Below, piece after piece: positions 7,031 to 30,141 of a stretch of DNA of 64,000 bases. Origin of the DNA: Henckelia pumila. Taxonomy: Eukaryota > Streptophyta > Magnoliopsida > Lamiales > Gesneriaceae. A model generated the notes under the pieces. It was given only the letters and a program-made list of their open reading frames with translations, was not told the origin of the DNA and made no database searches. Position numbers and translations under genes: made by a program. The stretch covers positions 2,232,001 to 2,296,000 of the forward strand of contig NC_133123.1 of NCBI RefSeq assembly GCF_033568475.1. Reading direction: 5' to 3'. Each line of letters begins with the position of its first letter. Position 1 is the first letter of the stretch.

Positions 7031-7035
<5 letters not shown>
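6773..7035 (-). repeat. 5' LTR of the copia element
   Basis: 263 bp, TG...CA ends, near-identical to the LTR at 1225-1487. The adjacent minus-strand TGTTATCAGC resembles the tRNA-iMet primer site TGGTATCAGAGC. The outer edge abuts a long TA repeat. Confidence 0.95.

Positions 7036-7091
<56 letters not shown>
7036..7091. repeat. (TA)n microsatellite
   Basis: About 28 uninterrupted TA dinucleotides directly outside the copia 5' LTR. A smaller TA run also flanks the other LTR, so the element inserted into a TA-rich site, or the repeat grew after insertion. Confidence 0.95.
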
Positions 7092-7585: not shown

Positions 7586-7605
7586 TTTATATATGTATAA
7601 ATGTA

Positions 7606-7703
7606 TGTATGTATGGTTGCGTTTATTGTGGGTTGTGATTAGACTATATATATGGATAAATCATATTGTAAGTATTAAACTAATTTTAAGATGATGGAAA
7701 TAA

Positions 7704-7735
<32 letters not shown>

Positions 7736-7820
7736 ATGATTGCGTTTATTGTGGGTTGTGACTAGATTATATATGGATAAATCATATTGAAACTATGAAA
7801 CTAATTTTATAAGATGTGGA
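7606..7820. repeat. Direct duplication, about 123-bp period
   Basis: The phrase 'tgcgtttattgtgggttgtga' begins at 7618 and recurs at 7741. Each copy continues into 'ggataaatcatattg' and 'aaactaatttta'. A TA run at 7710-7736 separates the copies. Apart from this, 7092-8600 holds no gene that I can see. Confidence 0.75.
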
Positions 7821-10270
7821 ACAATTATGGATAATAAGTAATAACATGCATGCTTAGTTTGATTTATCAATATTGTAATTGAAATTATGATTTTATAATA
7901 TATCATTTTATTTTTATTTTGTATCTGTATTTTAATTTGAAATTGCGATTTTTATTGAAGAATGTAAATTATTCTTAATCACTAATAAGTTATTTTAATT
8001 CACCAAAATTATTGGGTATCAATATTAGTTACATTTAAAAAAAGTCCACAAATAAGGAGAAAATAAAATGAAATTTATTTTATTCATGTTTTATTATTTT
8101 TAAAATGGGGTTTTTTATATATTATTTTTTTTGAAAAAAAATAAAGGGTATTAATGTGATTTCTATTCGTTGGAAATAATATAGTAAAAATGATTATTTA
8201 TCACATATTTTATTATAATAATCATCATGTTTTTAAGGTTTAATTTAGGTTGGATAGACCTTACGATTAATACACGCCACAAAAAAAATGAGATTGATAG
8301 GATTTAGTATAATTATATTCTTATCATAAAAACTACACACAACTATAATAAATAGAAAATTAAATTACTTTTGTATCGGTATGCTTGTTACTGTGCTACT
8401 GCTGTTTTGATTTCTCATAATATTATTATTCAGGTGAATCTTTATCTTTTGGGTTAATTGTCAATCACTCCCTAAATCAATTTATCACTTATTTATAAAT
8501 CCCTACATAAATAAAACTTACTTTCAACTCCCTGGAGAGAGAAACTTTTGTTTATAAATACCAATTATACTCTTATCTCCTAAAATTATTTTTTTAAAAA
8601 AAAAAGAATGGATAATAAAAACAAACTAATCCAAATAGTATATATATAAAAATTCAAATTAAAATCAAAGAACATAAACCATATCATATACATGCTTATG
8701 TTGATACAGGAGCAAGTATGTATTTAGGAAGCAAACATATACTTCCAAATTATTATTGGAAGAAATATGATAAAGGATTAAAAGTTCGAATAGGAGATGG
8801 ATCAATAATCATGCTTGATACAGTAGCAGAAAAATTAAAAATAGAAATTGAGAAAAAAAAATTTGTAATACCCATTATATACCAAATAGAATCAGGAATG
8901 AACATTATAATATGAAATAACTTTTTAAGAGAATATCTTCTTTTTACACAATTTGAAAATCATATAACTTTAAACAAAAGATCATCAATGATTTATATTC
9001 CTAAAATACGAACAGCATTTCGTGTAAGAAATGAAGGATTTACAAAGAATTTTCATAAACGAAATACAAATCTAATAGAACTAAAAATAGAAAATATTTT
9101 AACAATTAATCATGAAAAATAAATCATGAAGAAATTTCATGATATTTGTTCTGAAAATCCTCAGGACAAAATTAAGAAAAGAAAACAATTCATTGCTTCA
9201 ATAAAACTTAAAGACCCTAATATCACAATCCGTAAAGCACCAAGAAGATGCAAAATGGATGATGTAAAAATATTCGAAAAAGAGGTTTAAGAATTACTAA
9301 AACTTAAGATAATCATCCCAAGCAAGAGTCCACACTCTTCACCAACCTTTTATGTCAGTAAGAAAGACACTGATAAGAAAAATATGGTAATTGATTATCA
9401 AAAATGAATAATGCAACAATTATGGATGGATATTACATCCCAAACAAGAATGATTTACTATCTTACATAGGAGGAATGAAATATTTCTCCAGTTTAGATT
9501 GTAAATCAGGATTCAGGCAAATTCAGCTAGAACCACAAACTCAACTACTTACAACATTCAGCTGTCCAAAAGGACAATATCAATGGACTGTATTATCTTT
9601 CGAACTTAAACAAGCTCCAGGTATCTTTCAAAGATACATGGATGAATCTTTTAAACCTTATGTAGATTTTTGTTGTGTTTACATAGATGACATATTAATT
9701 TACTCAAAAACATTAGATCAACATTATAGAGACCTTATGACAGTATTAGATATTTGTCATAAAGATGGAATTATACTTTCTGAAAAGAAAGCACAATTGT
9801 TTAAAACAAAAATAAATTATCTAGGATTACAAATAGAAGACGGAAAACATTGTTTGCAACAACATATACTTAAGAAAATTCATGATTTTTCTAGTGAAAT
9901 CAAAGATAAAGATCAATTAAGAAGATTGCTAGGATTATTAACTTATTCTGAAAATTACATTAAGAAACTTGCAGAAATCAGAAAACCTCTTCAGGTCAAA
10001 CTTAAACAGGACTATAAATGGAAATGGTCAAAAGAAGATACTAATTATATAGACACTATTAAAAAAAAAAAAATTAGTAATCTTCCAGAATTATATTTTC
10101 CTTCATATAAAGACATAATAATAATTGAAACAGACGCCTCAGATGAATACTGGAGAGCATGTTTAAAAGCTTATACAGGAGAAAAAAATTTAGAAGGACT
10201 TACTAAAACGGCTACTAGGAATAATGAAAAATTATGTAATTATACATCAGGAACTTTTCAAGGTGCACAA

Positions 10271-11802
10271 TGATAAGTGCATTTTGTATGCATTAGTTTG
10301 TGTTATTTTTATATTTATTTTGTGTGCATTCATATTATTTTTATGTGTGTTTATATGTTTTAATGCATGTCTGTGTATTTCACTTTCCCGGTTAATTTTG
10401 TAGGAAAATGGATTTTTGAAGAGTTAATTATGGAGCAGCTTTGATCTAAAAATCATATTTAATTTTATAAAAATCCAAATCCGATCTTCACCAATGATAA
10501 TGAAGTTCAAGATGTTTTGAAGCTGATGTCCAAATTTTAGCTCGATCCGACGGCTAGAACTCAAGATATGAATTTTTTAAAATTGTCGCTCGAGCTGGTT
10601 GAAAGTTGCGCTGATGGTGAGTGTGTAGCGCGTTTGCCCTTGTGTTTGGCGCTAACAAGAAATGGTGGAGGCGCTATCGTGCTAAGGAAAGGGAGTTTAG
10701 CGCATGAAGTCTGTGCATGAGTTTTTCTCGGGCAGAAAATGTCTCGCTCGAGCGAGAGTTGATGCTCGCTCGAGCGAGCGAGACGTGATTTCAAATCCTC
10801 GGAGCAAAAGAGTGTTCGCTCGAGCGAGCCGCGCGACCAGAGTTTTATTTTTGGAAAATTATTTCTCGGAAAGGATATTATTTTTTTAATATTTGGGACC
10901 TATAAATATATTTGAGCATCAGAATAAGGGTTCCAGAGTTGGAGAGTTCCAGATTTTCAGAGGTGGCTACAGGCTACACGCTTGGGAGAAGATTTCTTAT
11001 TCTTTTTTTTATTTTATTTTTACTTTTCATGATTAAAAATCTTGTTTGATCATGAATTTATTTATTGAGTAGTTTTCTATTTCGATCAAGGCCACGTGAT
11101 TAGGCCAGACAATTTATGTATAAAACTCGTTTGTTTATTTGAGATTTTTAGACTTGATTTGATTTTATTGATTATCGAATTTATATTTGTCTTACGAATT
11201 TCTTGGCCAGTTATTTGTTTGCTTGTTAATCGATTCCAAGTCGACAGAGGAGGTCTCGAATTCGATCACTTTGATAGTCAACATAGTGTAAAACTGACTA
11301 GAAATAGAATTCGGTTTCATTATGCGGTTTGGGTGTAAACCGAATTTTCACAGTTATTCATGCATTCAAGTTTGATTAGAATTACGAAATATTAGTTCAT
11401 CAATATTTGAATAGGTTTGATTGTTCTAGAAATAGTCCTTCGAACAAATTAGGAAAATTCTCGTGAATTAAGATTAAGTCTGATGTCTTAGATCGACTGC
11501 TTGTTACATGAATTGTCTGGTACCTACGCGAGTCCTTGATCGAACTTTTCCCAAATTTGAAGTAATCCAAAATTTTCCAGCTGCGTTTTTACTTAATTTA
11601 ATTTTAATTGCAATTTTTAATTATTAGTTAAAATCTGAAATCGCTATTTTTGATTAGTCTAGATTAGGTAGAAATAAATATATTTTGGTAATCATTTTTA
11701 TACAGTCCCTGTGGGTTCGACACTTGGACCTTTGTCCACTATATTATTACTTGACCTGGTACGCTTGCCAGTTGAATTTATTCACACTGATTAAAGCGGT
11801 CA
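10271..11802. mobile_element. Solo LTR (probable Ty3/gypsy) inside the viral polymerase
   Basis: A 1532-bp sequence that starts TGATAAGTGC and ends GCGGTCA, flanked on both sides by the 5-bp duplication CACAA (10266-10270 and 11803-11807). No primer site, gag or pol lies inside, so it is a solo LTR left by recombination between two LTRs. A TATAAATA box at 10901 marks a plus-strand promoter and suggests plus orientation. The centre is GC-rich, with repeated CTCGAG-centred palindromes. Assignment to gypsy rests on the general look of the ends and is the weaker part of the call. Confidence 0.85.
10742..10827. repeat. Cluster of GCTCGAGC palindromes in the solo LTR
   Basis: Three perfect palindromes centred on CTCGAG: TCTCGCTCGAGCGAGA at 10742-10757, GCTCGCTCGAGCGAGC at 10764-10779, and TCGCTCGAGCGA at 10816-10827. 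A shorter relative, TCGCTCGAGC, is near 10587. They stand out in AT-rich DNA and lie 70-160 bp upstream of the TATA box. Confidence 0.9.
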
Positions 11803-12145
11803 CACAACTAAATTATCATTCAAATGAAAAAGAATTATTAGCTTTAATATATACAATTAGAAATTATGAGATTTATCTTATTTCTAAACCGTTTTTAGTA
11901 AGAACGGATAATATGAATTTAACATATTTCAAGGCAAGAAAAATATCAAGAAATGCAAGGAGAAATGCAGCAAGGTTAATTAGATGGCAATTGGAATTGA
12001 ACCATTATCAGTTCGAGATCCAGCATGTCAAAAAAACGGACAATTCATTACTCGACGCATTAACTAGATAACTTCATCCAAATTATACTATCCGTAGTAC
12101 CAGAATAACAAAAGAGATCCTAAGTGATCTAGAAAATGACTACGA

Positions 12146-12414
12146 GTCATCCGAACATGCCTTAGAAAGCATGGGGAATATAAATTGATGAAATGAGATT
12201 TATATTCAAAAACATGAATTATTTTATGACTTCAATTCATCCGAACATGCCTTAGAAAGCATGGGGAATATAAATTGATAAATTGAGATTTATATTCAAA
12301 AACATGAATTATTTTATGATTTCAAGTCATCCGAACATGCCTTAGAAAGCATGGGGTATATAAATTGATGAAATGAGATTTATATTCAGAAACATGAATT
12401 ACTCTATGAGTAAA
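12146..12414 (+). repeat. 90-bp tandem repeat, three copies, between viral pol and the TAV-position ORF
   Basis: Three copies with an exact 90-bp period; 'ccgaacatgccttagaaagc' starts at 12151, 12241 and 12331. They differ at few positions. In caulimoviruses the promoter of the second (19S) transcript lies in or before this interval, so the repeats may carry transcription signals; that link is inferred. Confidence 0.9.
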
Positions 12415-12528
12415 ATAATCAATCTCATGAAAATTGGTTCAATTCTTGAAAAAGAATTCATAAATGCAATGATACGCATAAAAAAAAAACTATCCGAATT
12501 ACTCACGATAAAGAGTTAAATTTCTAAT

Positions 12529-12529
<1 letters not shown>

Positions 12530-12566
<37 letters not shown>
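12530..12566. repeat. (TA)n run upstream of the TAV-position ORF
   Basis: TA dinucleotide tract about 60-90 bp before the ATG at 12624, inside the viral sequence. It may have grown after integration. Confidence 0.85.
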
Positions 12567-12569
<3 letters not shown>

Positions 12570-12623
12570 TCTTGTGCAGGATGGAACAATTAGATCAATT
12601 AAAAGAATAATTGATTGACATAG

Positions 12624-13715
12624 ATGAAGAAATTCAGATTCTTCAACAAAGAAAAAAAGAATATAAATAAAAAAATTCAGAGGATAAAAGAAAAGATGAC
12701 AACGTCGTCATCATCATCCTCACCAAGAACACCAATCAAGTTAGCAACTCCATTTGACAAAATAATGGAGATGAATGAAAAACAGTCAGTGGTCACAGCC
12801 AACACTGATAACAAAGAAAAAGAAAAAGGAAAAGAAAAAGAAAAGAAGAAAGAACCGGTGGTCACAGCCAGCACCGAGAAAAATGAAAAAGAAGAAAGGA
12901 CGTTTAAAAGCGCCCTTGAAACAAGAGAAAGAAAGATGGTCAATCTGCGACCACAAAAACCAATTTTTGAAAAAACAAATTTTCCAGAAAAACTCAAAAC
13001 TGAATTCTTTGAAACACCAAACTATTTGAGAATAACCAAACCATCTGCAGGATATTGGCTACAAACTTGTGACACACAGAGCATATCAAGAGCAAGAACA
13101 CTACAAGGTGCTCCAGCGCATGAAGTCGCAAGATTCTTTTCAAATAGATTATTAAGCGGATTAGAAATCAGTCCCAACAATCAAGAGATAAAACTATTTT
13201 TATATCAACTGAGAAATAGTATTATCCAGTTCAAGAAAGCAGTCTTCAAGGATGAACCAGTGTTAACATTAAGTATTCGTTCAACCCTTCCAGATTGGAA
13301 AAATGACAAATTCTATCAACCGATGATATACATTCAATGTCGAAAAAATAAAGACAAGTTCTTATTTGAAGGATCAAATGAAGAGAAACCAGTAATGGAT
13401 ATCTCAACACTTCCTGAGATAAGAATAAAGACATTGATTGACATGATCTCAAAGACAGGAAAGATTGATGGAAACTCAAAGGTTAAAATAAATTTTGCAA
13501 CCAGTAAAATTTTATTAACCACTGGACACAAGGAGACAATCCAAAAGAAAGAACAAGCCATGTTAGCTCAATTCGAAGCTCCAATCTATGAAGCAAGAGT
13601 TGACATGACCCGAGAAACCCAACAAATGTTATGTCAAAGACTAAGAACAATGAATTCCACTCACAAATGTGTACATTGCCAACCCATTCAGACAGAAGAA
13701 GAATCTGTCAAATAG
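12624..13715 (+). CDS. Caulimovirid TAV/inclusion-body-position ORF (363 aa, fossil)
   Basis: This open frame follows the polymerase and precedes the 35S-like promoter, exactly where caulimoviruses carry ORF VI, the transactivator/inclusion-body protein that allows reinitiation on the polycistronic viral RNA. The N-terminal 100 residues are low-complexity and rich in Lys and Glu, including a Ser run. Residues about 115-330 look globular. A CVHC pair lies near the C terminus. The identification rests mainly on position and size; I did not recognise a specific TAV motif. The frame still looks whole, so this part has decayed less than the polymerase. An upstream Met-rich stretch means the true start could be the ATG a little further in, at MTTSSSSS. 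Confidence 0.65.
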   Translation: MKKFRFFNKEKKNINKKIQRIKEKMTTSSSSSSPRTPIKLATPFDKIMEMNEKQSVVTANTDNKEKEKGKEKEKKKEPVVTASTEKNEKEERTFKSALETRERKMVNLRPQKPIFEKTNFPEKLKTEFFETPNYLRITKPSAGYWLQTCDTQSISRARTLQGAPAHEVARFFSNRLLSGLEISPNNQEIKLFLYQLRNSIIQFKKAVFKDEPVLTLSIRSTLPDWKNDKFYQPMIYIQCRKNKDKFLFEGSNEEKPVMDISTLPEIRIKTLIDMISKTGKIDGNSKVKINFATSKILLTTGHKETIQKKEQAMLAQFEAPIYEARVDMTRETQQMLCQRLRTMNSTHKCVHCQPIQTEEESVK

Positions 13716-13779
13716 GACAAACCAGCTATCAAAGAAGACAAACCAATAAAGAAATGGTCCGAATGTACCAGTGATTCAG

Positions 13780-13960
13780 AAAGTGACACAATGTAAAAAC
13801 AAATAAAATCATGGACCACACCACATGTGAAAGGCATCCACTCAGATGTAAAATGAGCTGTTTTCCATTATGTAGTATCGGATGGTCCCCCTCTTCCTTT
13901 ATTTTTACTACTGTATGCATTTCTCCACGCCTATAAAAGGAGATGTTTGTGTTGTAAATG
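13780..13960 (+). promoter_or_regulatory. 35S-like viral promoter with TATA box at 13932
   Basis: TATAAAAGG at 13932-13940 follows a stretch with short GC-rich phrases ('ggatggtccccctcttcc'). About 45 bp downstream comes a CT-rich run ('gagtatctctctcttctt') like the transcript start of caulimovirus 35S promoters. It lies between the TAV-position ORF and a long leader ending at the primer site, the standard pararetrovirus arrangement. Confidence 0.75.
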
Positions 13961-13964
13961 AATA

Positions 13965-14634
13965 AGTGAAGTTTGAGTATCTCTCTCTTCTTAAGTTTCT
14001 TACAATCTGATTCATACAAGACGTATGAAAACTATCAGAAACTAAGAAACATAAAATCAAAAACAAAATTAAGCCTTATGGCTAATAACTAAACAAGCAG
14101 GGCATAAGGAGGATAAGGTTGGAAGTCAACCATTGAAGATTCATGGTTAGAGTAAACCTGGAAATCCATAAAGCAAGTACCAGTTGATCAAGTGATCGTT
14201 AAGGGAAAGCAAGGATTTGGCCTCTGCTCAAAACCAAGACTCATTCAATCAAGGTAACCTTTCCAAATCTCCTGCAGCCCTTAATTTAAAGAAATAGTCA
14301 AAATACATTAATCATGTCATCATTCTTTATGATTAATAATAAAAAACTGGTTTGAAATAGAAGATGATCATGAATATGATATATTTCATGAATATCATTT
14401 GAATACTTCTGATTTAACCATATTTGAATCAATTTATCAACTAAAATTTGTAATAATAACCTATGAATGGAACCAAATTAATCAAAAAACATTTATCTGT
14501 TATAAATGAATCAGATCTGTAAAACATGAATGAGAAATTCATAAGAATTCCGCAACCAATGAGAAATTCATAGATCTGTAAAACATCATAGATCTGTAAA
14601 ACATGAATGAGAAATTCATAAGAATTCCGCAACC
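13965..14634 (+). other. Viral leader, about 670 nt, with a 44-bp direct repeat
   Basis: The length between the TATA box and the primer site (about 700 nt) fits the long structured leader of caulimovirid pregenomic RNA. A 44-bp block starting GATCTGTAAAACATGAATG occurs at 14514-14557 and again at 14591-14634, the second copy ending exactly at the primer site. Several short ATG-led frames occur, as in other caulimovirid leaders. Confidence 0.7.
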
Positions 14635-14650
14635 TGGTATCAGAGCGGTT
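14635..14650 (+). other. Viral tRNA-Met primer binding site
   Basis: TGGTATCAGAGCGGTT is complementary to the 3' end of plant initiator tRNA-Met, the minus-strand primer of all caulimovirids, and by convention nucleotide 1 of their genomes. The small ORF at 14669 starts 19 nt beyond it. Confidence 0.93.
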
Positions 14651-14668
14651 AAATAAAGCAGATTATTA

Positions 14669-14827
14669 ATGCCTGGATTAACTTTAGATATTGAGATTAA
14701 AAATTTATTTGATAAAATAATCTTACTAAAATATTTACGTCAAATAGATCAATTATGGAATAAAATAAAAGATCTCCAAATCTTTTATTCCAAAAATCAT
14801 AAAAAAGAACATTTTTCAAGCAACTGA
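14669..14827 (+). CDS. Small viral ORF after the primer site (ORF VII-like, 52 aa, fossil)
   Basis: Begins MPGLTLDIEIKN and is rich in Leu, Ile and Lys with a helical look. Its place, just after the primer site, corresponds to ORF VII of caulimoviruses, a small protein of unclear and often dispensable role. The assignment is by position only. Confidence 0.5.
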   Translation: MPGLTLDIEIKNLFDKIILLKYLRQIDQLWNKIKDLQIFYSKNHKKEHFSSN

Positions 14828-14983
14828 AAAATGATAATTCAAATTTCTGAAAACGATGAAATTGAAGACATAACAATATGTTATGACAATATGTTATGAA
14901 TAAGAACAAACTTTGTTATCGAAATCCGATCAACAAAAACAAAAAAATAAAAGTAACAATTTTTACTAAATGGAAAATGTATG

Positions 14984-15121
14984 TGATGCATCGGCAAGAC
15001 AGGGGAGCAGGGCCACGAATGCCCCGGGGAGCTCATATATTACTTCCATTAGCCCGGTCACCACGTCAGGCCCACAACACTACCCTGATAGCTCGGGCCC
15101 TGGTTTTACAAACCATCATCA
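14984..15121 (+). repeat. Left LTR of the gypsy element (short form)
   Basis: 138 bp, TGATG...CATCA. It matches the two outer parts of the 726-bp right LTR at 23471-24196 with four differences by eye. Confidence 0.9.
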
Positions 15122-15140
15122 TTGGCGCCGTCTGTGGGAA
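15122..15140 (+). other. Primer binding site of the gypsy element
   Basis: TTGGCGCCGTCTGTGGGAA directly follows the left LTR. The TGGCGCC start is the common primer-site form in plant gypsy elements of the Tat/Athila branch. Confidence 0.8.
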
Positions 15141-18100
15141 AGCTTGTTCTATAGACGTAGATATGGCTTCTCATGATCAAACATTACCTGGAGACCATCA
15201 GCCAGGACGAATTATTACCATTCCCTTGGAGCAGTTAGAATCATTTGTCCAAGATGTGGTACGGAAGTCGTTGATAGCTGCAAAGCAGCCACAATCAAAG
15301 GACATAACAGTGGAGGAAGAAGGGAATGAGGGTAATCCAAACCCTACTGCCCAGGTTCAAGAAGGAGAAGAAGAAGAAAGCTCTTGGATGCACTCAATAC
15401 AGCCGTCCATGGCAGATGAGTTGCATGAGCTCAGGAGGAAGGTACAGAAGTTGGAGGAGGGGGGTTCCCAAATGGCTTGCCCTATCAAAATTTCGGGTTG
15501 CCCTTTTTCACAGGAGGTGATAGAGGAACCCTTGCCACTGAATTACAAGTCGGCTAAAATCCGGGAGTACGATGGGAGCACAGACCCAGAGGAGCACCTG
15601 GCTTGGTTTGAAAATGTAGCCATGTTACATTGCTATGGAGATAAGATCAAATGCAAAGTCTTCCTAACCACTTTGGTGGATTATGCCCAAAGATGGTTTG
15701 AGAAGTTGGAGCTCCAGAGTGTTCAATCATTTGCAGAATTCAAGCAAGTGTTTTTGCAGCACTTCGGCAATAGCAAGAGGTATAGGAAAACTGCCTATAG
15801 CCTTTTTGATGCAAAGCAGTCAGGAGAGGAGTTTTTACGAACCTAAATCAAAAGGTTTAACAAAATTGCTTTGGAGGTCCCGACTTGTGCCCAGGAGACC
15901 AAGATCACGGCTTTCACTCAAGGTCTTCGGGAAGGGGAACTTTTCAAATCACTAGTGAAAAAAGCACCCCGGACCTTCGAATATTTGCTGGCTCGGGCTG
16001 AAAAATACATTAACATGGAGGAAGCTCAGAGGCAGAAAAAGGAGGTGGCCCGGCGGGAGGGAGGCCGGGAACAAGGAAGAAGTAGATAACCATGATCCCA
16101 TGGGGCGATTGTCCCGGTATGCTCCATACCGAGGGACCCGAGATAAGGCTGTTCATATGTGTGAAGAAAGGGTGGACACGCAGGCCCCTGTTTCTAAGGA
16201 GAAGCTCTGGAAGTACTTTGCACTTCATCAAGAGTGCACTCATGACACCAGTGAGTGCCGAACTCTGCAGCAAAGACACCAAATGCCTTATGTTAGAGAT
16301 GGTAGGTCGGTCCCAAAAAATCCCCGAAGCGTGCCTTGGTTTTGGGGGTCACAGACGTCGATTCCTCCCCGGGATGCCACCAGCTCTCGGGAAAAGGGAA
16401 ACAAGAAATGGATCATGCAAAAAAAGACAAAACATCTGGGGACGGGCCAGCCAAAGGTATCATTAACATGATATCGGGAGGATCTACGGATGGAGATTCC
16501 AACCGGGCTAGGAAGGCCTGGAGTCGGAGGGAAAGTTTAGGGGTGGAGGAAGGAAGGCAGGGTGCGGGGCCAATCATCACATTTGGACCCCAAGACCTGG
16601 AGGGAGTAAACTTACCCCATAATGACGTCTTGCTTATACAAGCTCGGATCGCCAATTATGATGTTCGAAGGGTGTTCTTTGACTCGGGAAGCTCAGTGAA
16701 TGCCCTTTTTCAAGAAGCATTCGAGCAGATGGATTTGCAGGGGTATGAGTTGAGCCCGGTAAAAACCGCCTTGTATGGTTTTGCCGGGCACACTGTCCAA
16801 CCCAAGGGGAAATTTTGCTGCCTATCACCTTGGGATCAGGAGATGAGAAGAGGACGGTCATGACAAGATTCACATTAGTGGAAGCACCTTCTTCCTATAA
16901 TGTCATCTTGGGTAGGCCGGCTATGAACTCTTTCAAAGCCGTAGCCTCAGCTTACCATCAAAAGATCAAATTCCCAGTGGGAGATAAGGTCGGAGAAGTT
17001 CGAGGAGATCAGCCTTCCTCTTGAAAATGCTATGCCGAGACAGTGAAGATAGACTACAAGAGGGCAAAACAGAATGGAAAGGAAGGAGCCTTGGGGGGAA
17101 GAGAAGTCTGTTCTGTGGAGGAATCTAAAAGCGAGTATGAAGAGGTAGAGATAGAGCTCGGGCAAACAGGGAAGTCTGTTAAAATAGCTCGGGATTTAGA
17201 CGCATGGTTGATTGAAGCATTGAGAGGCTGCCTCATTCAGAATAAGGATGCGTTCGCCTGGGCTCAGGGTGATTTGGTGGGAGTTTCATCTCGGGTGGCA
17301 GAACACAAACTAAACATCAGCCCGGGTTCCCGACCTGTCTTACAAAAGAAGAGGCATTTTGGGGCCGAGAAGGATAAGGTGATAGCGGAGCAGGTTCAAG
17401 AGCTACTGCGGGCCGGGCACATCAAGGAAATACAATTTCCTACTTGGTTGTCCAACGTAGTGCTAGTACCAAAGGCTACGGGGAATTGGAGAATGTGTGT
17501 GGATTTCCGGGATTTAAATAAAGCCTGTCCCAAAGATTGCTACCCTTTGCCCCGAATTGACCAGTTGGTGGACTCCACATCCGGGTGTGAGTTGCTGAGC
17601 TTCATAGATGCATACCAGGGCTATCATCAAATTCCTTTAGCCCTGGAAGATCAAGACAAAGTCAGCTTTGTCACCTCGGGAGGTACTTTCTGCTACGTAG
17701 TGATGCCATTTGGTTTGAAAAATGCAAGAGCTACGTATCAGCGGATGATGGACAGAGTGTTCCGGGAACAGGTGGGTCGAAATGTGGAGGTATATGTGGA
17801 TGATATATTGGTGAAATCCAGGACCCGGGATAGTTTCTTACCCGACTTGGAGGAAACCTTTGCGACAGTTCGGCGATATGGGATCAAATTGAACCCGGCC
17901 AAGTGTATGTTTGGGGTGAAAAGTGGCAAGTTTCTGGGGTTCATGGTCACTGAACGGGGGATAGAAGTCAACCCTGAAAAAGTGAAGCTGTTGGGAGAAA
18001 TGCCTTCACCAACATCTATTAAGGAGGTACAGCGATTAACCGGCCAGATTACAACCCTGGCTCGGTTTATAGATCGATCAGCTCATCGCAGCTATCATTT

Positions 18101-20360
18101 TTTCCAAGTGTTGCGTAAAGCCCAGAGGTTTGGCTGGACTGAGCAATGCGAGCAGGGCTTTCAGGAGTTGAAGGAGCATCTGGCTAGCTTGCCTATATTG
18201 GTTAAGCCAGAACCAGGGGAACGATTGTGGATATATCTATCCTCTACAGAAAAGGCGGTCAGCACTGTCTTGATAATAGAGGAAAAGGGAGATCAGAGGC
18301 CTGTGTACTACGTCAGCCATGCTTTGAAGGGGGCGGAGGTTAGATATACGGAGATTGAGAAGATGGCCTGGCTCTAGTAATAACGGCCTGGAAATTGAGA
18401 CCTTATTTCTTGTCTCACCCGGTAACTGTTCTTACTAATAGCCTCCTGGGGCGCATTATGACTCATCCAGATGCCTCGGGGAGACTCGTGAAATGGTCGG
18501 TGGAATTAGGAGAATATGATATTGAGTACCAGCCACGTAAGGCCATCAAAGCCCAGGATTTATCTGATTTTTTGACAGAGGTGGCCGTTTTTGGCCAAGA
18601 GGAAGTATGGAGGATTTTTGTAGATGGAGCAAGTGGTGTTGGAGGCAGTGGTGTGGGGATCATCCTGATCTCACTTGCCCAAGAGAAGATTGAGATAGCC
18701 GTGAAGCTAGACTTCCAGGCCTCCAACAACGAAGCTGAATACGAGGCTGTGATAGCTGGGATGCAATGAGCCCGGGATGTCGGGGTAAGTCATATCATAA
18801 TTTATTCTGACTCTCAGTTGGTTGTTCAGCAAGTAAACAAAACCTTCTGTACTCGAGAGGAGAAATTGATAAAATATTGTAAGATGATTGAAGAGCTCGG
18901 GGCCAGTTTCAACACTTGGAGTATAGAGCAGATACCCCGGGAAAAAAATATGGAAGCAGACGCCTTGGCTAAAAGAGCGGCCGCGGGGGAAGGTGATAGT
19001 AGAGAATCCCTTATGCAAAGGGAAACGGTGGCTGCCATAGAAGCCTGGGAGCCGGTCCTCCAAGTAAACACATGGAAGGCCCCGATTGTCAAGTACCTAA
19101 CTCAGGGGAACTTCCCGGAGGACAAAGGACGAGCTCGGATCATACGAAGACAGGCAGCCAGGTTTGCTATCTTGGGAGGAAGCCTGTATAGGCGTTCATA
19201 CCAGGGCCCTTTGCTCAAATGTTTGGGGGAAGGAGAAACCGAATATGTCTTGCGGGAAGTGCACGAGGGATGTTGTGGAAACCATGGAGGGTCTATGAGT
19301 CTGGTCCGAAGGGTGTTGCTGTCAAGATACTGGTGGCCCACTATGCAGGCAGACGCATCCAAGATTTCCCGGTCTTGTGAAGGATTTCAGAGGTTCGGAA
19401 ATATACAGCATAGCCCGGCAAGCAACTTGAATCCGATATGGGCATCCTGCCCCTTTGATCAATGGGGTCTGGACATAGTGGGACCTTTTCCACTAGCCCG
19501 GGCACAGAAGAAGTTCTTGTTGGTAGCTGTTGATTATTTTTCCAAGTGGGTGGAGGCAGAGCCTTTGGCAAAAATAACAGAGGCCGAGGTGATGAAGTTT
19601 TTATGGAAAAGCATAGTATGTCGATTTGGGCTACCGAGAAAGCTGGTCTCGGATAATGGCAGGCAATTTCAGGGCCAAAAATTGGCAGACTGGTGTGCCG
19701 AGATGGGCATTAAGCAGGTTTTCACCTCGGTCGCCTATCCTCAAAGTAATGGCCAAACAGATGTAACCAATCGTACTATTGTTCGATCTTTACAGGCGCG
19801 ATTGCATGGAATGGGGAAAGATTGGGTTGAAGAGATCCCGAGTGTGTTATGGGCCTATCGCACCACTCCACACACTGCAACACAAGAATCACCTTTTAGC
19901 CTGGTATATGGGTCGGAGGCTATTTTGCCAGTAGAGATCGGACAGCCTTCAGCTCGGATTAAAGCATATGAGGACACAGACGAAGGAGCCCGGGCACAAG
20001 AATTGGATCTCATTGAAGAACGAAGAGAGAAGGCGGCTCGTAGAATGGAGGCCTACAGAGCTCGGGTGATGAGAGCCTATAATCAGAAGGTCAGGCCTCG
20101 GGAATTCCAAGAAGGAGAATTTGTGTTGAAAAGAGTTAATCCAGCAGGGGAAGTAGGGAAGCTAGATGCCCGATGGGAGGGACCATATAAGCTTATCAGA
20201 AAAGTCGGTGCTAATACTTGGTACTTATAAGATGGCCAGGGACGCCCCCTCAAGCGACCATGGAATGCTTTACATTTGAAGAAGTATTTTGTGTAATGAT
20301 TTGTATTCAATGTTTTATTAATGAAGGAGTTTTATCATGAAAGAAGGATTTCCATTATAT

Positions 20361-20570
20361 AAGCCCGGGAGGTTCCAGGCACCGGCACCCATCATAAGCC
20401 CAAGGCATATATAAGCCCTTGGCATTATATAAGCCCGGGAGGTTCCAGGCCCCGGCACCCATCATAAGCCCAAGGCATATATAAGCCATTGGCATTATAT
20501 AAGCCCAAGAGGTTCCAGGCCCCGACAACTATCATAAGCCCAAGGCATATATAAGCCCTTGGCATTACCT
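20361..20570. repeat. 70-bp tandem repeat, three copies, after gypsy pol
   Basis: Units start at 20361, 20431 and 20501. Each contains 'aagccc', 'ggttccaggc' and 'aagcccaaggcatatataag'. The CCAAGG...CCTTGG pairs in each unit could form short hairpins. It lies between the integrase end and the antisense ORF region. Confidence 0.9.
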
Positions 20571-20684
20571 ACTCTTTTATTTATATATATCAGGCATTAA
20601 ATAATGGATAACAAGAACAGAGGAGTTACATTGACAACAGATTATGAGAGGTGGGGCTCCTACGGCCCAATTACAAATAATAAT

Positions 20685-23016
20685 TCAAAGTGCGGGGTTA
20701 TTAGAGGGACTGACATCTACAATTGTCTGACTCGGGGCAGCCTTTGCATTTTCAGCTCCTTGGGTGGCGGGGAGGGAGTCGATGGCCTTATCCAAGTCGG
20801 GAAAATCTCTCTTGTCAGAAGACCATAGGCCAGCTTCCTCGAATTGATCTCGGCATTTGTAAAATCCGACCTGGAAAAAGGTGTACGATCTATCCACCAC
20901 TGCCTCTTGAAACTCAGCAGAAGATAGGAAAGTTGCTTTGAGCTCTTCCTCTGACTTCAGGCGAGTTTCCAGAGCTGACACTGCTTTCTCCGCTTTATCC
21001 CTCGCACTGGCCGCTTCAGCTTGAGCCTCTGCAGCTCGGTTTTCAGCCGCCCTCAACTCATCCGTAGTGGTGGCTAGAGCATCTCGAGCCTGCCCTAGAT
21101 CAGCTTCAGAGCGGGCACGGTCTAGCTGAGCAGAGTGAAGACCTTGCTCGGCTGCCTCCAGGGCTGAACGGAGACTAGACGCCACTTGATCATGACTTTG
21201 TTGTGCCATCATCAAGTCCTGTTCCAATTTTTTGATCAACTCCGCGGCAGCCCGAGACTTCTCAGCTTCTACGTGTGCCCGATCAGTCTGAATCCGACCA
21301 AATTTGGTCGCATCTTCATAGCTGTCCACCAGCATATGCAGTCCCTGAAAGCAGAGGTATTAGAAATAGAAAACAGAACACGTTCGAGACTAGGAGAAGT
21401 AAACTTACGGATATAACCCGGTTGGTGCCCTCGAAATACTTCACGTTCGGGTTTTGGTTATAGAGGTGGAGCTGCTCCGCAGAAGTCAAGAGGTCCTTCA
21501 GCATCCGCACTCCCCGACCAGAGGCCCCGGCTTGGAATATATTTTCCCTCGCACCGAAGGGACTAGATCCCTGGGCAGCCTGGTAAAAGGGGGCCAACGG
21601 GGGGAAAGAGGGAGAGGAAGGAGCCACCTCTTTTGGGTCACTAAGAATGACCATTTCTGGCTCCTCTATGGCTTTTCTCTTCCGCGTCAAAGGAGAGGAG
21701 GGACCGGCAGCAGAAGGAGCCTGATCATTCGTCCACCCTGCCTCCACAGATGGAACTGGCAGGGGAACAGCAGAAGGTGAAGGAACGGAGACCTCGGGGG
21801 TGACCACTGCAGTGGCAGCCTCCTCACCTATGGCTTGTTGAGCCCTGCGTTCCTCCGCTAGTTGAAGGACTCGGGTCTTTCTAGCTGCCTCTGCAGCCCT
21901 GGCTTCTTCCTTTTCCCGGGCAGCTGCCTTCTCGGCTGCCCGTTTCTGAGCAAAGGCCTGCTTCATCAGTCGAGATTTTTTCTTCTTAGGCGGGGCTGGG
22001 GATGCTGCGCAAAAATGATAAAAATCGGTACATTAGAAACAACATGTAAGAGAAGCAAATAGATGGTAACAGTAAAGCATACCAGTGACTGGGGCCGACT
22101 CATCATATTCATCAATAATCCGGTCATCCGGATCCGTTACCCGGGCACCCAGCCCGTAATCATTCAAACTTGTTTCCTCCAGGAGAGGGGCTGAAGGAAA
22201 CTTCTGGTTTTCCACTAGCTCTTGGGTTCGGAGGTAGGGTTCCTCCAACTTATAATTTTTAGGGAGCTCGGGTTGAAGAGGAAGGGCCGTCAAGAATTGG
22301 GTAGGTCTGGTTCGGGCACCAGGGAGTTGAATATAAAAGAATCTTTCTTTCCATCCCTTCCACGAGGAAGGGGTATCATCTAGAAACCGGGCATTCTGCC
22401 GGGCATTCAAAGAGAAAGCCATCTTCGTGAAACGGCAGGCATAATAGTAGTGAAAGATGAGAGGGGTGATGGCTAAGTTGTTCGCTTTGAAAAGAACGTA
22501 AGTGGCAGCCATCATACGGAAGGCATTGGGATGAAATTGGTTCAAGGAAACCTTGTAAAAAGAAGCAATTTTGTAATAAAAAGGATGAATAGGGAAACGA
22601 AGCCCATTCATGAGCTGTTCCCTGAAGAAGGTATAGAACCCCTCGGGCGGCTGGTCAGCCCAGCCTAGGGGCCCCGGAATGAGAATAGAGTACGCAGGAG
22701 GAATGTTACCCATAAGCCTAAGTTCCTCTATGGATTCTGGGCGGAGGGTACTGGTAAAGTGGGAGAACCAGGGACCTTCGGGGTTTGGTTTGGGCAAAGG
22801 AAGGAGAGGCCCAGAGTCGGATATTTTAGCCTTACCCTTGTCCTTAGAAGGCCCGATTTTAGCCTTCTTCGGACGAGATGAGGAGGGAGCTACTGTGGAT
22901 TGGACATGGGAGGTGACAGGATGGGGAGAATCGTGGCGTAAGGCCTCGGATTCTATATCAGAGGAGCCACGAACGTGGCCACCGGAGGTTGAAGATGTGG
23001 AATTTGACATGTTCAA
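20685..23016 (-). pseudogene. Antisense ORF region of the gypsy element (putative gypsy-type transposon domain, then coiled coil)
   Basis: Open stretches on the minus strand lie opposite to gag-pol. The first, starting at 23016, has a Ser-rich N terminus and then a globular part (PPEGFYTFFREQLMNGLRF, HPNAFRMMAATYVLF) resembling the plant 'putative gypsy type transposon' family (PF04195). Next comes a low-complexity part rich in Pro, Ser and Val and an Ala/Glu/Arg-rich coiled coil of some 200 residues. Extra antisense ORFs between pol and the 3' LTR are known in Tat elements. Whether the stretches are separate or spliced in this family cannot be told here. The function is unknown. Confidence 0.65.
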
Positions 23017-23404
23017 AGGACAAGGAAACTTTAAGGTAAGATAGACAGAAAACTTACAGAAGAAAGCAAGCTTTCTACGCGGAGTCGCCGGAGCCGGAGA
23101 AGCTTAGAAGCAGGGAGGGAATACGTAAATAGGGAAAGTAAAGAAAAAGTGAAGAAAGGGGCCTCGTTTTTATAGGCGAAGAGCTTTAATGCTGGCCGTA
23201 GATGAAAAGATGATCGAAGGGTAAGGGTGATCTTGGGAAGTTGAACCGGGCAGCGTAATGATGACGCGGGCAGTCGAAAGGACAGGTAACGTCCTCTGAC
23301 ACCTGCCCGTCTTTTCAAATTCTAGGGTTAACGTCAGCCCTAGAATTTTTGGACATTACTGAACGATACCCCCAGAAGGCCGGGGAAGCAAGGCTTTGAA
23401 CAGC

Positions 23405-23676
23405 CAGGGGCAGGACTGTAAGTCAGGACAGCGAGTAAGACTCTAGCCTGACTATTTTTGGGATGAGTAGTGATGCCCCGGCAAGACAGGGGAGCAGGGC
23501 CACGAATGCCCCGGGGAGGAGGGACATAAAGAGTCAGGGATTACAGGGTTGTATTAAAGCAAGGGTGGCGGAACTGTAAGTCAGGACAGCGAGTAAGACT
23601 CTAGCCCGACTATTTTTGGGATGAGTAGTGATGCCCCGGTAAGCCAGGGGGGCAGGGCCACGAATGCCCCGGAGTG
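23405..23676 (+). repeat. 158-bp direct duplication across the internal/right-LTR boundary
   Basis: The block containing 'gtaagtcaggacagcgag' and TGATGCCCCGG starts near 23419 and recurs near 23577 (TGATGCC at 23471 and 23629, a 158-bp shift). The true LTR start is the first, because the left LTR matches the sequence after it. The second copy therefore lies inside the LTR together with sequence that resembles the internal 3' end. Confidence 0.85.
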
Positions 23677-24196
23677 GTAGGGCCGTATTAAGGCAGCCCA
23701 GTAGCCTCAGGAGCCCGGGAAACCAGGTCTGCAGGACTTATATAAAGCCCGTGTTTTAGGGGCATGATCCCCACGATTATCATCAACCCGAGCTTTTCGG
23801 GTTCATCGTACGTGACAGGCAAACATGGGCAACTACCGCACCCACGATCCAGATCGTGGCCACTACCCTGGAATTGTGGAGTGACACTCTCACTCCAAGG
23901 CCTTTAAATACCTGGTCACAGATATTTGTAAAGATATGTTCATCTAAACTTCCAAAGCACTATACTCATTTCTCTAAAAAGCCCACTCTATTTCTAAGCT
24001 AACTTAAGCATCGGAGTGGCCCCGCCGGAAACTCCTCCGGCGCCCCACTAACGTGCTTTTTATTCCCTTTCTTGGTGTGCAGATCATCTTGATTAAGGAA
24101 GGACAGCTCATATATTACTTCCATTAGCCCGATCACCACGTCAGGCCCACAACACTACCCTGATAGCCCGGGCCCTGGTTTTACAAACCATCATCA
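23471..24196 (+). repeat. Right LTR of the gypsy element
   Basis: 726 bp, TGATG...CATCA, followed by the target duplication GTATG. It contains the second copy of the 158-bp duplication and then GC-rich sequence with many CCCGGG-like words. Confidence 0.9.
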
Positions 24197-24212
24197 GTAT
24201 GAAAATACAAAA

Positions 24213-24407
24213 ATGAATATCTTTAATTTATATTATCAAAATATAAATTTTGATATAAAAAATTGTGAAAACAATTTGAAACATCTTAAAAATTGTCAAT
24301 CTTCAATTGATAGTTTCGAAGATTTTCAGAATTTATTAGAACAGATAGATTCAACAAAAAGACTTTTAATAGCCTTAAGAAAATTAAGAAGTTTTATCAT
24401 CTGTTAA
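24213..24407 (+). CDS. Small viral ORF before the movement protein (64 aa, fossil)
   Basis: Starts MNIFNLYYQNINFD and is Asn/Leu-rich with heptad-like spacing. It lies just past the gypsy insertion and ends one base before the movement-protein ATG. I do not recognise it. It belongs to the short-ORF zone between primer site and movement protein. Confidence 0.45.
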   Translation: MNIFNLYYQNINFDIKNCENNLKHLKNCQSSIDSFEDFQNLLEQIDSTKRLLIALRKLRSFIIC

Positions 24408-24408
24408 A

Positions 24409-25350
24409 ATGACAGAAGTAACAATTCCAAATCAAAATAGTCAGATTGATGAATCTGAAGAGAACCAAGAGTATAATTTGAATATTATATTTAATCAGAA
24501 TAAGTTTGCTCAGATACAGAAAACAGGGTTTTCTAATTCAAAAAAAAATCTAATAGACCAACCAGGAATATTAAGCAAGATTTCAAATTTTATTAATCCG
24601 AGAAAAAATTTAATTTATTATTCGATTCGTACAAAAGAACGATCTTGTAAAATAAATAACGAATCAAGGTCTAATACTCTGAAGTTATTAACAACTCAAG
24701 ATATTGATACCATCATGACAAAAGCCAGTGAAAAAGAACGATCTGAACTGAAATATGTTCACATTGGAGGAATCGAAATAATAGTATCAGCTCACTACCG
24801 AGAAGGAATAGATACACCAATTGAAATCACAGTTCGTGACAAAAAGATACGTAATTTTGAGGATTCTATCTTTGGAAAAATTGAAGGAAACTTATGTCAC
24901 AAAAAGATGAAATTTTGTATTTATCCACAATACAATATATCTCTTTTTGATAAAAACATAAATGACATTTTAACATTAGATTATTACTTTTATAGAAATA
25001 ATCTTATGTTAACAGGAAACCATCCGATCAATATAAGTTATGTTGTCGGTTTAGCAATAAGTAATAATTTTCAAACAGGAATAATTTCAACAAAACCAAC
25101 TATTTCTGTTGAAAGAATGTTCGAAAATATTACAAGAATTGAACACCCTCGAAAAGCATTTATTGAGGAAATAAATCCCTATAAAAGATGGAGTTCAGAT
25201 GACCTCCAAATCACAAAACAGTCTGTACCAAGAAGATCATTATCATTTGCTAGAAATGATGAAGATATTCTTGAAAAGATTGGAACCATGAATCAAAATA
25301 TTCTTAAAATTAAACAAGCTATTGTTAATGAATCAACCTCATCGCAATGA
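24409..25350 (+). CDS. Caulimovirid movement protein (313 aa, fossil ORF still open)
   Basis: It resembles caulimovirus P1, which forms tubules through plasmodesmata for cell-to-cell spread. Shared stretches include HIGGIEIIVSAHYREGIDTP, a KKMKFCIYPQYNISL block and ISYVVGLAISN, matching the order and spacing of the 30K-type movement domain at residues about 115-235. The C-terminal 30 residues (EKIGTMNQNILKIKQAI) look coiled-coil, as in caulimovirus P1, where this end binds the virion-associated protein. The family is usually about 320-330 aa, so the length is normal. The next ORF overlaps its stop by four bases (ATGA). Confidence 0.9.
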   Translation: MTEVTIPNQNSQIDESEENQEYNLNIIFNQNKFAQIQKTGFSNSKKNLIDQPGILSKISNFINPRKNLIYYSIRTKERSCKINNESRSNTLKLLTTQDIDTIMTKASEKERSELKYVHIGGIEIIVSAHYREGIDTPIEITVRDKKIRNFEDSIFGKIEGNLCHKKMKFCIYPQYNISLFDKNINDILTLDYYFYRNNLMLTGNHPINISYVVGLAISNNFQTGIISTKPTISVERMFENITRIEHPRKAFIEEINPYKRWSSDDLQITKQSVPRRSLSFARNDEDILEKIGTMNQNILKIKQAIVNESTSSQ

Positions 25351-25640
25351 CGTCCTTAATAAAATTAGAAAAAGATCTAGGAGATTTAGAAAATAATATT
25401 AATAAGATCAATCTATCAATACAAGAATTAGAGAAGAATTTCAAAGAACATATTGATTTAGCAACGACTAGATTAATAATTGAACATGAAAGACATAGTA
25501 ATGAAATATTAAACTATCTTAAAGAAGTTATTCCAATATATAAAGGAAAAAGGAAAATGAAAGAAGAATCACCATTCAAAATTGAATCATGGTATAGAAA
25601 TCCCCTTAGTTTTGGCAAACATAAGTATAGAGATGTTTAA
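25347..25640 (+). CDS. Virion-associated-protein-like ORF (97 aa, fossil)
   Basis: The ATG overlaps the movement-protein stop (ATGA). The first 60 residues form a heptad coiled coil (LEKDLGDLENNINKINLSI), as in the caulimovirus ORF III product, which links virions to movement-protein tubules. The C-terminal tail (SWYRNPLSFGKHKYRDV) is basic. CaMV ORF III is 129 aa, so this is somewhat shorter. No ORF equivalent to the aphid-transmission factor (ORF II) lies between it and the movement protein. Confidence 0.75.
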   Translation: MTSLIKLEKDLGDLENNINKINLSIQELEKNFKEHIDLATTRLIIEHERHSNEILNYLKEVIPIYKGKRKMKEESPFKIESWYRNPLSFGKHKYRDV

Positions 25641-27018
25641 TGAAACAGACTCATCTGATTTTGAACAAATAGGAGTAAATACAGAAGAATTATATCATTC
25701 ACATCAGAAATCAGAACAATACAGAGATATGGATATTTCAGAATCAGAATCTGAAGATGATTCTAGACCACGATTAAATCTACGAACGAATGTAGAAGGT
25801 AGTGGTGGAAGAGATGATGAAGAATTTAAATATAACAGAGACCAATACTCTGGATCTTATAAAGATGTTAGAGATATTCTTAGAAAATCAAAAACATCAG
25901 GATTTGTGAAACAGAATATCTTAGATTTAGGTTGTTCAACAGCCAAAGAAAAAAAAATCAAAGATAGATCATTGTGCAAATGAACTATCAGTACAAATTT
26001 AATTAACATTATTATTAGACAAAAGTGAGAATATTCAAGTTTTAACTCATGGGATGATAAAAATGACACTGGTAGGAGCAGTAAGAACTTGGGTTGAAAA
26101 CCTCGTAATTACTAATCTACCACAAGGAATGACAGGACATCGATATTTCGAACTATTTGTTGATGTCTTGTACCAAGAATTTTTCGGAGTTTCTAATAAT
26201 GACGCTAATTTAGTAGCCAAAAATATAGAACAAAATAGAGCAATTTTTATTTTGGATAATATAAAATTATGTAATCTATGTTATCTAGAAGAATTTATAT
26301 GTGATTATGAAACAAACTATTATCAGTTAATAGATGCTGATAAAAAAAACATTATAAATTAAGTATTTTTAATAAAATACCTAATATACCAATAAATAGT
26401 AAAGATGAATTCTTAACTAGTGCTTATGCCAAAACACTAGGAGGAGATATTAAATTTATTAAAGACGTTATAACAAAAAAATGTCATGAAATAACATTAA
26501 ATAAAAGAATATCCAAATATTACAAACAAAACAATAAACTTTATTGTGACAAAATGAAATTCACAGTAAAAGAATACGGTTGTAAAACAAATATGTCACA
26601 CAAACATTTAAAACGACAGAAACATAAAAAATTAAATAAACCTTATAAATCTTTTAATAGAAAATTTATTCTCTATAAGAAAAAGAAATTTAGAAGGAAT
26701 TTCTTCAGAAAACCTTATAAAAGAAAATTTTATAAAAATTTTGATAATAAAAAACCACCTTGCCCAAAAGGTAAAGGAAAGAACTGCACATGTTGGTTGT
26801 GCAATGAAGAAGGTCATTATGCAAATGAATGTCCAAAACGAAACGAAAAGAAAAATAAAGTTAAAATTCTTGAAAAAATATATACTAATGGATTCTATCC
26901 AGTAAAAACAATTGAATTTTCATCCGACGATGAAAATATTTATTATCTTGATGAATCAAGTGAATCAGATTTTGAATCTTATTCCACATTTGATAATTCA
27001 AGAAATAATAATGATTAA
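25633..27018 (+). pseudogene. Caulimovirid coat protein region, broken
   Basis: It starts at an ATG overlapping the preceding ORF's end. The N terminus is acidic (ISESESEDDSRPR), the middle has the capsid-like stretch with GAVRTWVENLVI and FFGVSNNDANLV, then a strongly basic Lys/Arg segment, a CCHC zinc knuckle (CWLCNEEGHYANEC, about 26.79-26.83 kb), and an acidic Ser/Asp/Glu tail. This order is that of caulimovirus ORF IV. The region is broken in a few places. Confidence 0.88.
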
Positions 27019-27035
27019 AATAAAACAAGGGCATT

Positions 27036-28022: not shown

Positions 28023-30141
<2,119 letters not shown>

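What the first reader, a model, noticed from the sequence alone, without database searches (positions are those of the whole stretch)
8605..27035. A full-length, permuted endogenous caulimovirid hidden under two nested retrotransposon insertions
Seen: every caulimovirid module is present on one strand in circular order, and the three viral segments left after removing the two insertions sum to about 7.6 kb. Known: caulimovirid genomes are circular, 7-9 kb, and have no integrase. Inferred: a single whole genome copy was captured by the host chromosome and later hit twice. The movement-protein similarity to Caulimovirus is clear, but the genus may be new.
Basis: partly seen in the sequence, partly recalled or inferred. 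Interest (0 to 1): 0.88.

Follow-up and report, generated by a model that had tools for sequence, protein, structure and literature searches.

The report
Plant virus genome inside Mutator-like transposon
A plant-virus family that has no integration enzyme of its own is present here as a whole genome sitting between the ends of a jumping gene, in hundreds of copies, many of which show the footprint of a transposon insertion.

Summary
In detail: 8605-27018 carries one genome-length caulimovirid, interrupted by a solo LTR (10271-11802, TSD CACAA) and a Ty3/gypsy element (14984-24196, TSD GTATG). The inference 'one captured copy' fails. The unit runs from 8451 to 27105, with 30-nt terminal inverted repeats (24/30 paired, GGG..CCC) and a 9-bp target duplication. 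The host genome holds 276 matches to its right end. Of 41 copies examined (window plus 40 of 126 listed), both ends were readable in 22: 15 have a perfect 9-bp duplication of their own, 4 have 8 of 9 (shuffled pairings: 0 of 462 perfect). These are hallmarks of Mutator-like DNA transposons. Pairwise dN/dS is about 0.2 overall, nearer 1 between recent copies and 0.10-0.15 between old ones, so viral genes were under selection while lineages sharing these ends diverged. Best reading: a caulimovirid-Mutator chimera that inserts as a DNA transposon and probably also replicated as a virus. The transposase is untested (search did not complete), no circle junction and no empty element were found. RT is 51% identical to a Caulimovirus-type RT, below published genus cut-offs.

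The parts
8442..8450 (.). left target-site duplication TTATCTTTT
   Evidence: exact copy at 27106-27114
8451..8480 (+). left terminal inverted repeat (GGGTTAATTG...)
   Evidence: 24 of 30 positions pair with the right end; 20,000 random pairs: mean 8.2, max 20
8451..8604 (+). left non-coding end shared by sister copies, with purine run GGAGAGAGAAA at 8534-8544 (possible plus-strand primer site, inferred)
   Evidence: similarity in 13 of 20 left stretches starts near 8437-8451; 40 scored of 769 candidate places
8619..9119 (+). aspartic protease, two open pieces
   Evidence: Peptidase_A3 3.6e-25 and 1.6e-5
9395..10270 (+). reverse transcriptase and start of RNase H, open piece
   Evidence: RVT_1 1e-28; PDB 8r0s_A 2.6e-94
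10266..11807 (+). insertion 1: solo LTR 10271-11802 (TG..CA) with 5-bp duplications CACAA at 10266-10270 and 11803-11807
11808..12068 (+). rest of RNase H
   Evidence: RT_RNaseH 1.5e-14 on the open piece 11658-12068
12136..12416 (+). three 90-bp tandem repeats between pol and the next ORF
12624..13715 (+). 363-aa ORF in the position of the translation transactivator; identity not shown
   Evidence: no significant Pfam family, no homolog, poor fold model
13931..13940 (+). TATA-like CTATAAAAGG of a probable pregenomic promoter
   Evidence: role inferred
13960..14634 (+). structured leader
   Evidence: z -3.55, 0 of 20 shuffles as stable
14635..14646 (+). TGGTATCAGAGC, Met-tRNA primer binding site
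14669..14827 (+). 52-aa small ORF downstream of the primer site
   Evidence: no family
14979..24201 (+). insertion 2: Ty3/gypsy element 14984-24196, short left LTR 14984-15121, right LTR from 23471 (or 23629), duplications GTATG
24213..24407 (+). 64-aa small ORF before the movement protein
   Evidence: no significant family
24409..25350 (+). movement protein, open, 313 aa
   Evidence: PF01107 5.6e-34; 68% identical to a Primulina tabacum protein over 89%
25347..25640 (+). 97-aa helical/coiled-coil ORF overlapping the movement protein stop
25561..27018 (+). capsid gene in three open pieces, broken twice, with CCHC knuckle in the last
   Evidence: zf-CCHC 2.9e-5
27019..27105 (+). right non-coding end, with right inverted repeat 27076-27105
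   Evidence: shared in 17 of 20 right stretches; end 32-mer 276 times in genome at up to 2 mismatches, control 0
27106..27114 (.). right target-site duplication TTATCTTTT

Best explanation
SHOWN: the unit is a non-autonomous DNA-transposon-like element of the Mutator type (30-nt GGG..CCC inverted repeats, 9-bp AT-rich target duplications) whose interior is one caulimovirid genome opened between capsid and polymerase; its right end is present 276 times in the genome. INFERRED: a Mutator-like transposase supplied in trans cuts at the two ends and inserts the unit. INFERRED, less certain: because the viral genes were kept by selection while the lineages diverged, the inserted form alternated with a replicating circular viral form in which the two ends lie side by side between capsid and polymerase, so the transposon ends gave an integrase-less virus a proviral stage. 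The window copy is a dead member that later took two retrotransposons. My probabilities: structure 0.95, transposase in trans 0.8, viral replication of the end-bearing form 0.5; the confidence below is for the whole.
For: Shared ends: right end in 17 of 20 and left end in 13 of 20 stretches of the first batch; 34 and 23 of 40 with both batches. Both ends readable in 22 of 41 copies, window included: 9-bp duplication perfect in 15, 8/9 in 4, 7/9 in 1, one inside a TA repeat with ambiguous register and one better read as 8 bp; cross-pairings 0 of 462 perfect and 15 of 462 with 8 or more. Arm pairing 24/30 in the window. 276 right ends at up to 2 mismatches, reversed control 0; of 29 exact right ends listed on C1, 11 have a listed movement-protein copy 2.6-2.7 kb inside, and 10 of 10 sampled from the other 18 have the capsid gene beside them. 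Pairwise dN/dS: RT 0.91 at dS below 0.05 and 0.12 at dS 0.25-1; capsid 0.70 and 0.15; movement protein 0.63 and, at dS 0.15-0.25, 0.11; unsorted ratios of means about 0.22 (RT) and 0.20 (capsid), worked out from the table, and 0.26 (movement protein). A 9-nt duplication is called typical for MULEs in PMC4486113 (passage).
Against: No transposase was linked to these ends: the PF10551 search was asked ten times and never answered. No joined-end junction that a circle would have was found in the genome (0 exact matches). No empty element without virus among 40 scored of 769 places, so the ancestor is not seen. The two flanks compared with each other alone did not stand out: best inverted score 32 and direct 30, against 30 and 34 for the 95th and 99th percentile of 300 shuffles; the ends were recognised through the sister copies. 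Of 40 sister copies 17 showed no left end and 6 no right end in the stretches fetched. The left end differs 5-7% between the main groups while synonymous sites differ 0.2-0.3, which also fits cargo exchange. The arms pair only 18-24 of 30. Bins by dS exaggerate the trend, and pairs are not independent.
Confidence: 0.55

Rival explanations
1. Passive cargo: viral DNA was trapped once inside a short Mutator-like element, which then spread only as DNA, as Pack-MULEs do with gene fragments; apparent selection comes from cargo being overwritten by recombination with free relatives or from several captures.
For: Fixed ends and duplications need no viral function; no circle junction; the window looks mosaic, 2-6% from copies 1, 4 and 5 per 150-bp bin before 9505 and 5-8% over 9505-9955.
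Against: A single captured genome spreading passively predicts dN/dS near 1; observed about 0.2 overall and 0.10-0.15 in the highest dS bins of four genes. Copies 3, 9 and 31 have diverged ends at the same boundary.
Confidence: 0.3
2. The ends are the virus's own and are used by some other recombinase that happens to leave 9 bp, not by a Mutator-like transposase.
For: No empty element was found (40 scored of 769) and no transposase was linked to the ends.
Against: GGG..CCC inverted repeats plus 9-bp duplications in AT-rich targets are the Mutator signature (passage; superfamily traits otherwise recalled).
Confidence: 0.1
3. One reading: accidental capture of a circular genome by break repair, once or many times independently.
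For: Circular gene order and genome length; repair is one of the two widely held hypotheses for endogenous caulimovirids (PMC10377300 section 3.1).
Against: Random opening predicts different ends and no duplications; the same right end was found in 34 and the same left end in 23 of the 40 sister copies sampled.
Confidence: 0.02
4. Segmental or tandem duplication of one integrated copy.
For: High similarity among copies (92-96% in movement protein).
Against: Homology stops at the element ends where these could be read and nearly every copy with both ends readable has its own duplication; copies lie on all four large contigs.
Confidence: 0.02

Closest known systems
Endogenous caulimovirids (ECVs), e.g. 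florendoviruses
   Same: Integrated, decayed, multi-copy pararetrovirus DNA without integrase; often in AT-rich or (TA)n sites (PMC10377300 section 3.1; PMC4241990 passages)
   Different: Integration there is described as accidental and copies as nearly all fragmented and rearranged (PMC4241990 passage); here constant ends, inverted repeats and 9-bp duplications
Genus Caulimovirus
   Same: RT closest among named references: 51% to PDB 8r0s, against 41% or less for the long BFVD matches such as Vaccinivirus, Rosadnavirus, Soymovirus and Badnavirus; RT tree puts it in a 12-row clade with 8r0s, support 99/97
   Different: Below genus cut-offs of 55% and 62%; one small ORF seen between movement protein and capsid; about 240 bp of non-coding ends between capsid and polymerase
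Mutator-like elements and Pack-MULEs; MuTAnT of Medicago
   Same: GGG/CCC-type ends, 9-nt duplications, AT or TA targets (passages)
   Different: Cargo is a whole virus genome under past selection, not gene fragments or a transposase
Teratorn (piggyBac-herpesvirus fusion, fish)
   Same: A whole virus genome fused to DNA-transposon ends and spread in the genome (PMC10175614 abstract and passages)
   Different: Different virus class (reverse-transcribing, 7.9 kb), different transposon superfamily, plant host, and no transposase found in the viral pieces scanned
Integrase-like motif of Petunia vein clearing virus (recalled)
   Same: Proposed way for a caulimovirid to gain integration
   Different: Protein motif in pol, not transposon ends; not tested here

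Membership tests
Caulimoviridae | AP-RT-RNase H polymerase without integrase | tested here: met
   no significant integrase match on the viral pieces scanned (one phage-integrase domain at E 0.39)
Caulimoviridae | 30K movement protein, CCHC capsid | tested here: met
   PF01107 5.6e-34, zf-CCHC 2.9e-5
Caulimoviridae | genome 7.1-9.8 kb (PMC7660458, whole text), Met-tRNA primer site | tested here: met
   7,900 bp unit; exact site at 14635
Caulimoviridae | translation transactivator | tested here: inconclusive
   ORF in the right place but no similarity found
Genus Caulimovirus | RT identity above 55% (Diop 2018) or 62% (Vassilieff 2026) | tested here: not met
   51% over 289 aligned residues of a partial, decayed domain
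Genus Caulimovirus | groups with it in RT tree | tested here: inconclusive
   same 12-row clade (99/97) but nearer Abeliophyllum copies with weak support 81/62; no Soymovirus or Ruflodivirus row was in the tree
Mutator-like element | 9-bp target-site duplication | tested here: met
   15 of 22 perfect, 4 of 22 with 8/9; 0 of 462 control pairs perfect
Mutator-like element | terminal inverted repeats | tested here: met
   24/30 in window, 18-24 in 22 copies
Mutator-like element | moved by MULE transposase (PF10551) | not tested
   search did not complete (ten calls from 117 to 137)
LTR retrotransposon | long terminal direct repeats and integrase | tested here: not met
   no long direct repeat of the unit's ends (best direct score 30 equals the 95th percentile of shuffles); no significant integrase in viral pieces
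Virus-transposon fusion of Teratorn type | transposase carried inside the fusion | tested here: not met
   no transposase match on the viral pieces scanned; inside the unit, integrase or transposase-like matches lie in insertion 2

The most novel reading that the evidence does not exclude
A pararetrovirus lineage acquired Mutator-type transposon ends between capsid and polymerase genes and thereby a true proviral stage: it replicated as a circular virus under selection, integrated hundreds of times through a host transposase, and could leave the chromosome by transposon excision.
Probability: 0.42. Interest if true: 0.97.

Novelty: new variant of a known kind. Interest (0 to 1): 0.88.

Why it matters
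How integrase-less caulimovirids enter plant chromosomes is called speculative in the 2023 review (PMC10377300 section 3.1), although endogenous copies are very common. This family shows one concrete route, insertion by DNA-transposon ends, and makes it testable in other plants: look for 9-bp duplications and inverted repeats at genome-length copies. It may also bear on the reported (TA)n bias of such copies, since a Mutator-like family is known to target TA repeats (this link is my inference). It would be a plant counterpart to the fish herpesvirus-piggyBac fusions.

Tried and rejected
Rejected or without result: repeats between the two viral ends (score 20, the median of 300 shuffles) and direct repeats between the flanks (score 30, the 95th percentile); an empty element lacking virus (none among 40 scored of 769); a head-to-tail or circle junction (0 exact matches); recognition of the 12624-13715 ORF by sequence or fold (its model had mean pLDDT 39 and was not searched). 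Three IMG/VR scans found no relative. The coiled-coil ORF matched only designed helical proteins and unrelated chains. Placement by movement protein was not possible: only one homolog was returned. Dating is rough: the LTRs of insertion 2 differ at 4 of 138 aligned sites, or 8 of 138 if the right LTR begins at 23629, about one to four million years at commonly used plant rates (recalled). Co-variation of the two arms is weak: diverged copies 3, 9 and 31 pair 19-21 of 30 within themselves and 17.6-18.3 on average across. Arm divergence correlates with capsid dS only at 0.31 (left) and 0.43 (right) over 91 pairs. Row labelled 11 in the movement-protein set is locus L012, not sister copy 11; one of 12 rows (L011, other length) was dropped there. 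Sister copies were picked by hand from the 126 others listed, mostly from the upper ranks: 40 of 126. In the protease, RT and capsid sets, copies with under 80% of the piece were dropped, leaving 14, 15 and 19 of 20 beside the window.
Full report
Searching only open pieces, the + strand between 8619 and 27018 gives protease, reverse transcriptase, RNase H, movement protein and a CCHC capsid piece, all in the circular order of a caulimovirid, with a TATA-like box at 13931, a leader more stable than all 20 shuffles made and an exact TGGTATCAGAGC primer site at 14635. The two insertions are simple: a 1,532-bp solo LTR with duplication CACAA, and a Ty3/gypsy element with duplication GTATG. The polymerase is broken by in-frame stops and frame changes before 9404 and by insertion 1; the capsid gene is broken twice; the movement protein is open.

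The decisive step was the host genome. The movement-protein search scored 127 places, the window included, out of 2,286 first-look candidates; the other 126 match over 310 or more of the 313 residues at 92-96% identity, many with stops, and lie on all four large contigs and some small ones. I fetched short stretches around the expected left and right ends of 40 of them and compared them with the window piece by piece. None of those 20 right-hand stretches runs straight from capsid into polymerase; one (L020) showed no match, and one (L032) has a diverged polymerase start 1.4 kb after its capsid gene.

Those limits are transposon ends. The outer 30 bases pair 24 of 30 in the window, while 20,000 random 30-mer pairs average 8.2 and never exceed 20; an earlier blind flank-to-flank alignment had not stood out from shuffles beyond the 99th percentile. 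On either side of the window unit stands TTATCTTTT. Both ends could be read in 22 of 41 copies, window included; the 9-bp duplication is perfect in 15, has one mismatch in 4 and two in 1; one copy sits in a TA repeat where the register is ambiguous, and one is better read as 8 bp. Pairing each left flank with other copies' right flanks gives 0 perfect of 462 and 15 of 462 with 8 or more. The duplications are 97% A+T. A 32-mer of the right end occurs 276 times with up to two mismatches, and its reversed control 0 times. Of 29 exact right ends listed on contig C1, 11 have a listed movement-protein copy 2.6-2.7 kb inside; of the other 18, ten were sampled and all ten have the capsid gene at the expected place. 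Results against: 17 of the 40 sister copies showed no left end and 6 no right end in the stretches fetched, perhaps through truncation, nested insertions or distance, and copy 20 looks different at both ends.

Were these just dead passengers? Pairwise dN/dS (Nei-Gojobori, own script) speaks against it for the history between subfamilies. For RT, 36 pairs with dS below 0.05 have ratio 0.91 and 23 pairs with dS above 0.25 have ratio 0.12; for the capsid end 0.70 (28 pairs) and 0.15 (57 pairs); for the movement protein 0.63 (34 pairs) and, at dS 0.15-0.25, 0.11 (6 pairs); for protease 2.85 at near-zero dS (34 pairs) and 0.10 (7 pairs). Sorting by dS exaggerates such a trend, but the unsorted ratios of means are still about 0.2 (RT and capsid from the table; movement protein 0.26). 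So recent copies decay close to neutrally, while the lineages separated under strong constraint, and copies of several lineages carry the same type of ends. The window copy also looks mosaic. This fits an end-bearing virus that replicated and recombined. It would also fit a transposon whose cargo is refreshed by recombination with free viruses.

Taxonomy: the RT piece is 147 of 289 aligned residues (51%) identical to PDB 8r0s_A 'Enzymatic polyprotein' (that this is cauliflower mosaic virus is recalled), against 93 identities to the Ty3 enzyme and 41% or less for the long BFVD matches of other genera. Some partial BFVD matches reach 43%, among them a truncated Dahlia mosaic virus piece and Sweet potato collusive virus. 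The tree holds 28 rows: the window, two PDB rows and 25 chosen from the 104 search hits. In it the window joins a 12-row clade with that RT (99/97), nearest weakly to Abeliophyllum copies (81/62), on a long branch. Published RT cut-offs for genus-level groups are 55% (PMC5766536, passages) and 62% (PMC13308828, one section read), so a new genus-level group beside Caulimovirus is likely but not proven with a partial, decayed domain.

Literature: the 2023 review gives double-strand-break repair and LTR-retrotransposon machinery as the two widely held hypotheses, mentions a suggested hijacked transposon-derived integrase, and calls the mechanism speculative (PMC10377300, first parts of two sections read); its main text does not contain the words Mutator, target site or TSD. 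The main text of the 2026 survey contains none of six such terms. Four searches for a pararetrovirus combined with Mutator, inverted-repeat or DNA-transposon terms (listings and starts of abstracts only, 20, 12, 3 and 12 papers shown) showed no such report by title or abstract; the library lacks most subscription journals, so this is not proof of absence. MuTAnT (PMC4486113, passages) documents 9-nt duplications and TA targeting in a Mutator-like family, and Teratorn (PMC10175614, abstract and passages) is the nearest known kind of virus-transposon fusion.

Noticed in passing
28023-29890: A Rab-type GTPase gene (Ras family 1.3e-14 at 28432-28650 and 1.4e-21 at 29543-29887) begins about 0.9 kb downstream of the element's right end; the start codon position is my reading.
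   Followed up: partly
3876-5135 (-): Decayed retrotransposon pieces left of the element: integrase core, SH3-like and gag-pre-integrase matches at 3879-4673, Ty1/copia-like by my reading.
   Followed up: partly
20685-23103 (-): Insertion 2 carries long reverse-strand ORFs between polymerase and right LTR (one matches Transposase_28, 'putative gypsy type transposon').
   Followed up: no
14984-15121 and 23471-24196: The left LTR of insertion 2 lacks about 590 bp present in the right LTR; the right LTR start lies in a 158-bp tandem duplication, so its exact start is ambiguous.
   Followed up: partly
6225-6518 and 7588-7809: 98-bp (2.8 copies) and 123-bp (1.8 copies) tandem repeats, and (TA)n at 7035-7091, in the AT-rich left flank.
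   Followed up: no
8534-8544: GGAGAGAGAAA purine run in the left end, also seen beside a diverged copy in L032; possible plus-strand primer site.
   Followed up: no
L032 and L052: Copy 20 shows no left transposon end and its right end differs; another diverged polymerase start (84%) lies 1.4 kb after its capsid gene.
   Followed up: partly
34763-35341, 37946-38500, 42582-43187: Three invertase/pectin methylesterase inhibitor (PMEI) matches on the + strand, the third below Pfam's cut-off; a RING/VWA protein at 49380-50777.
   Followed up: no
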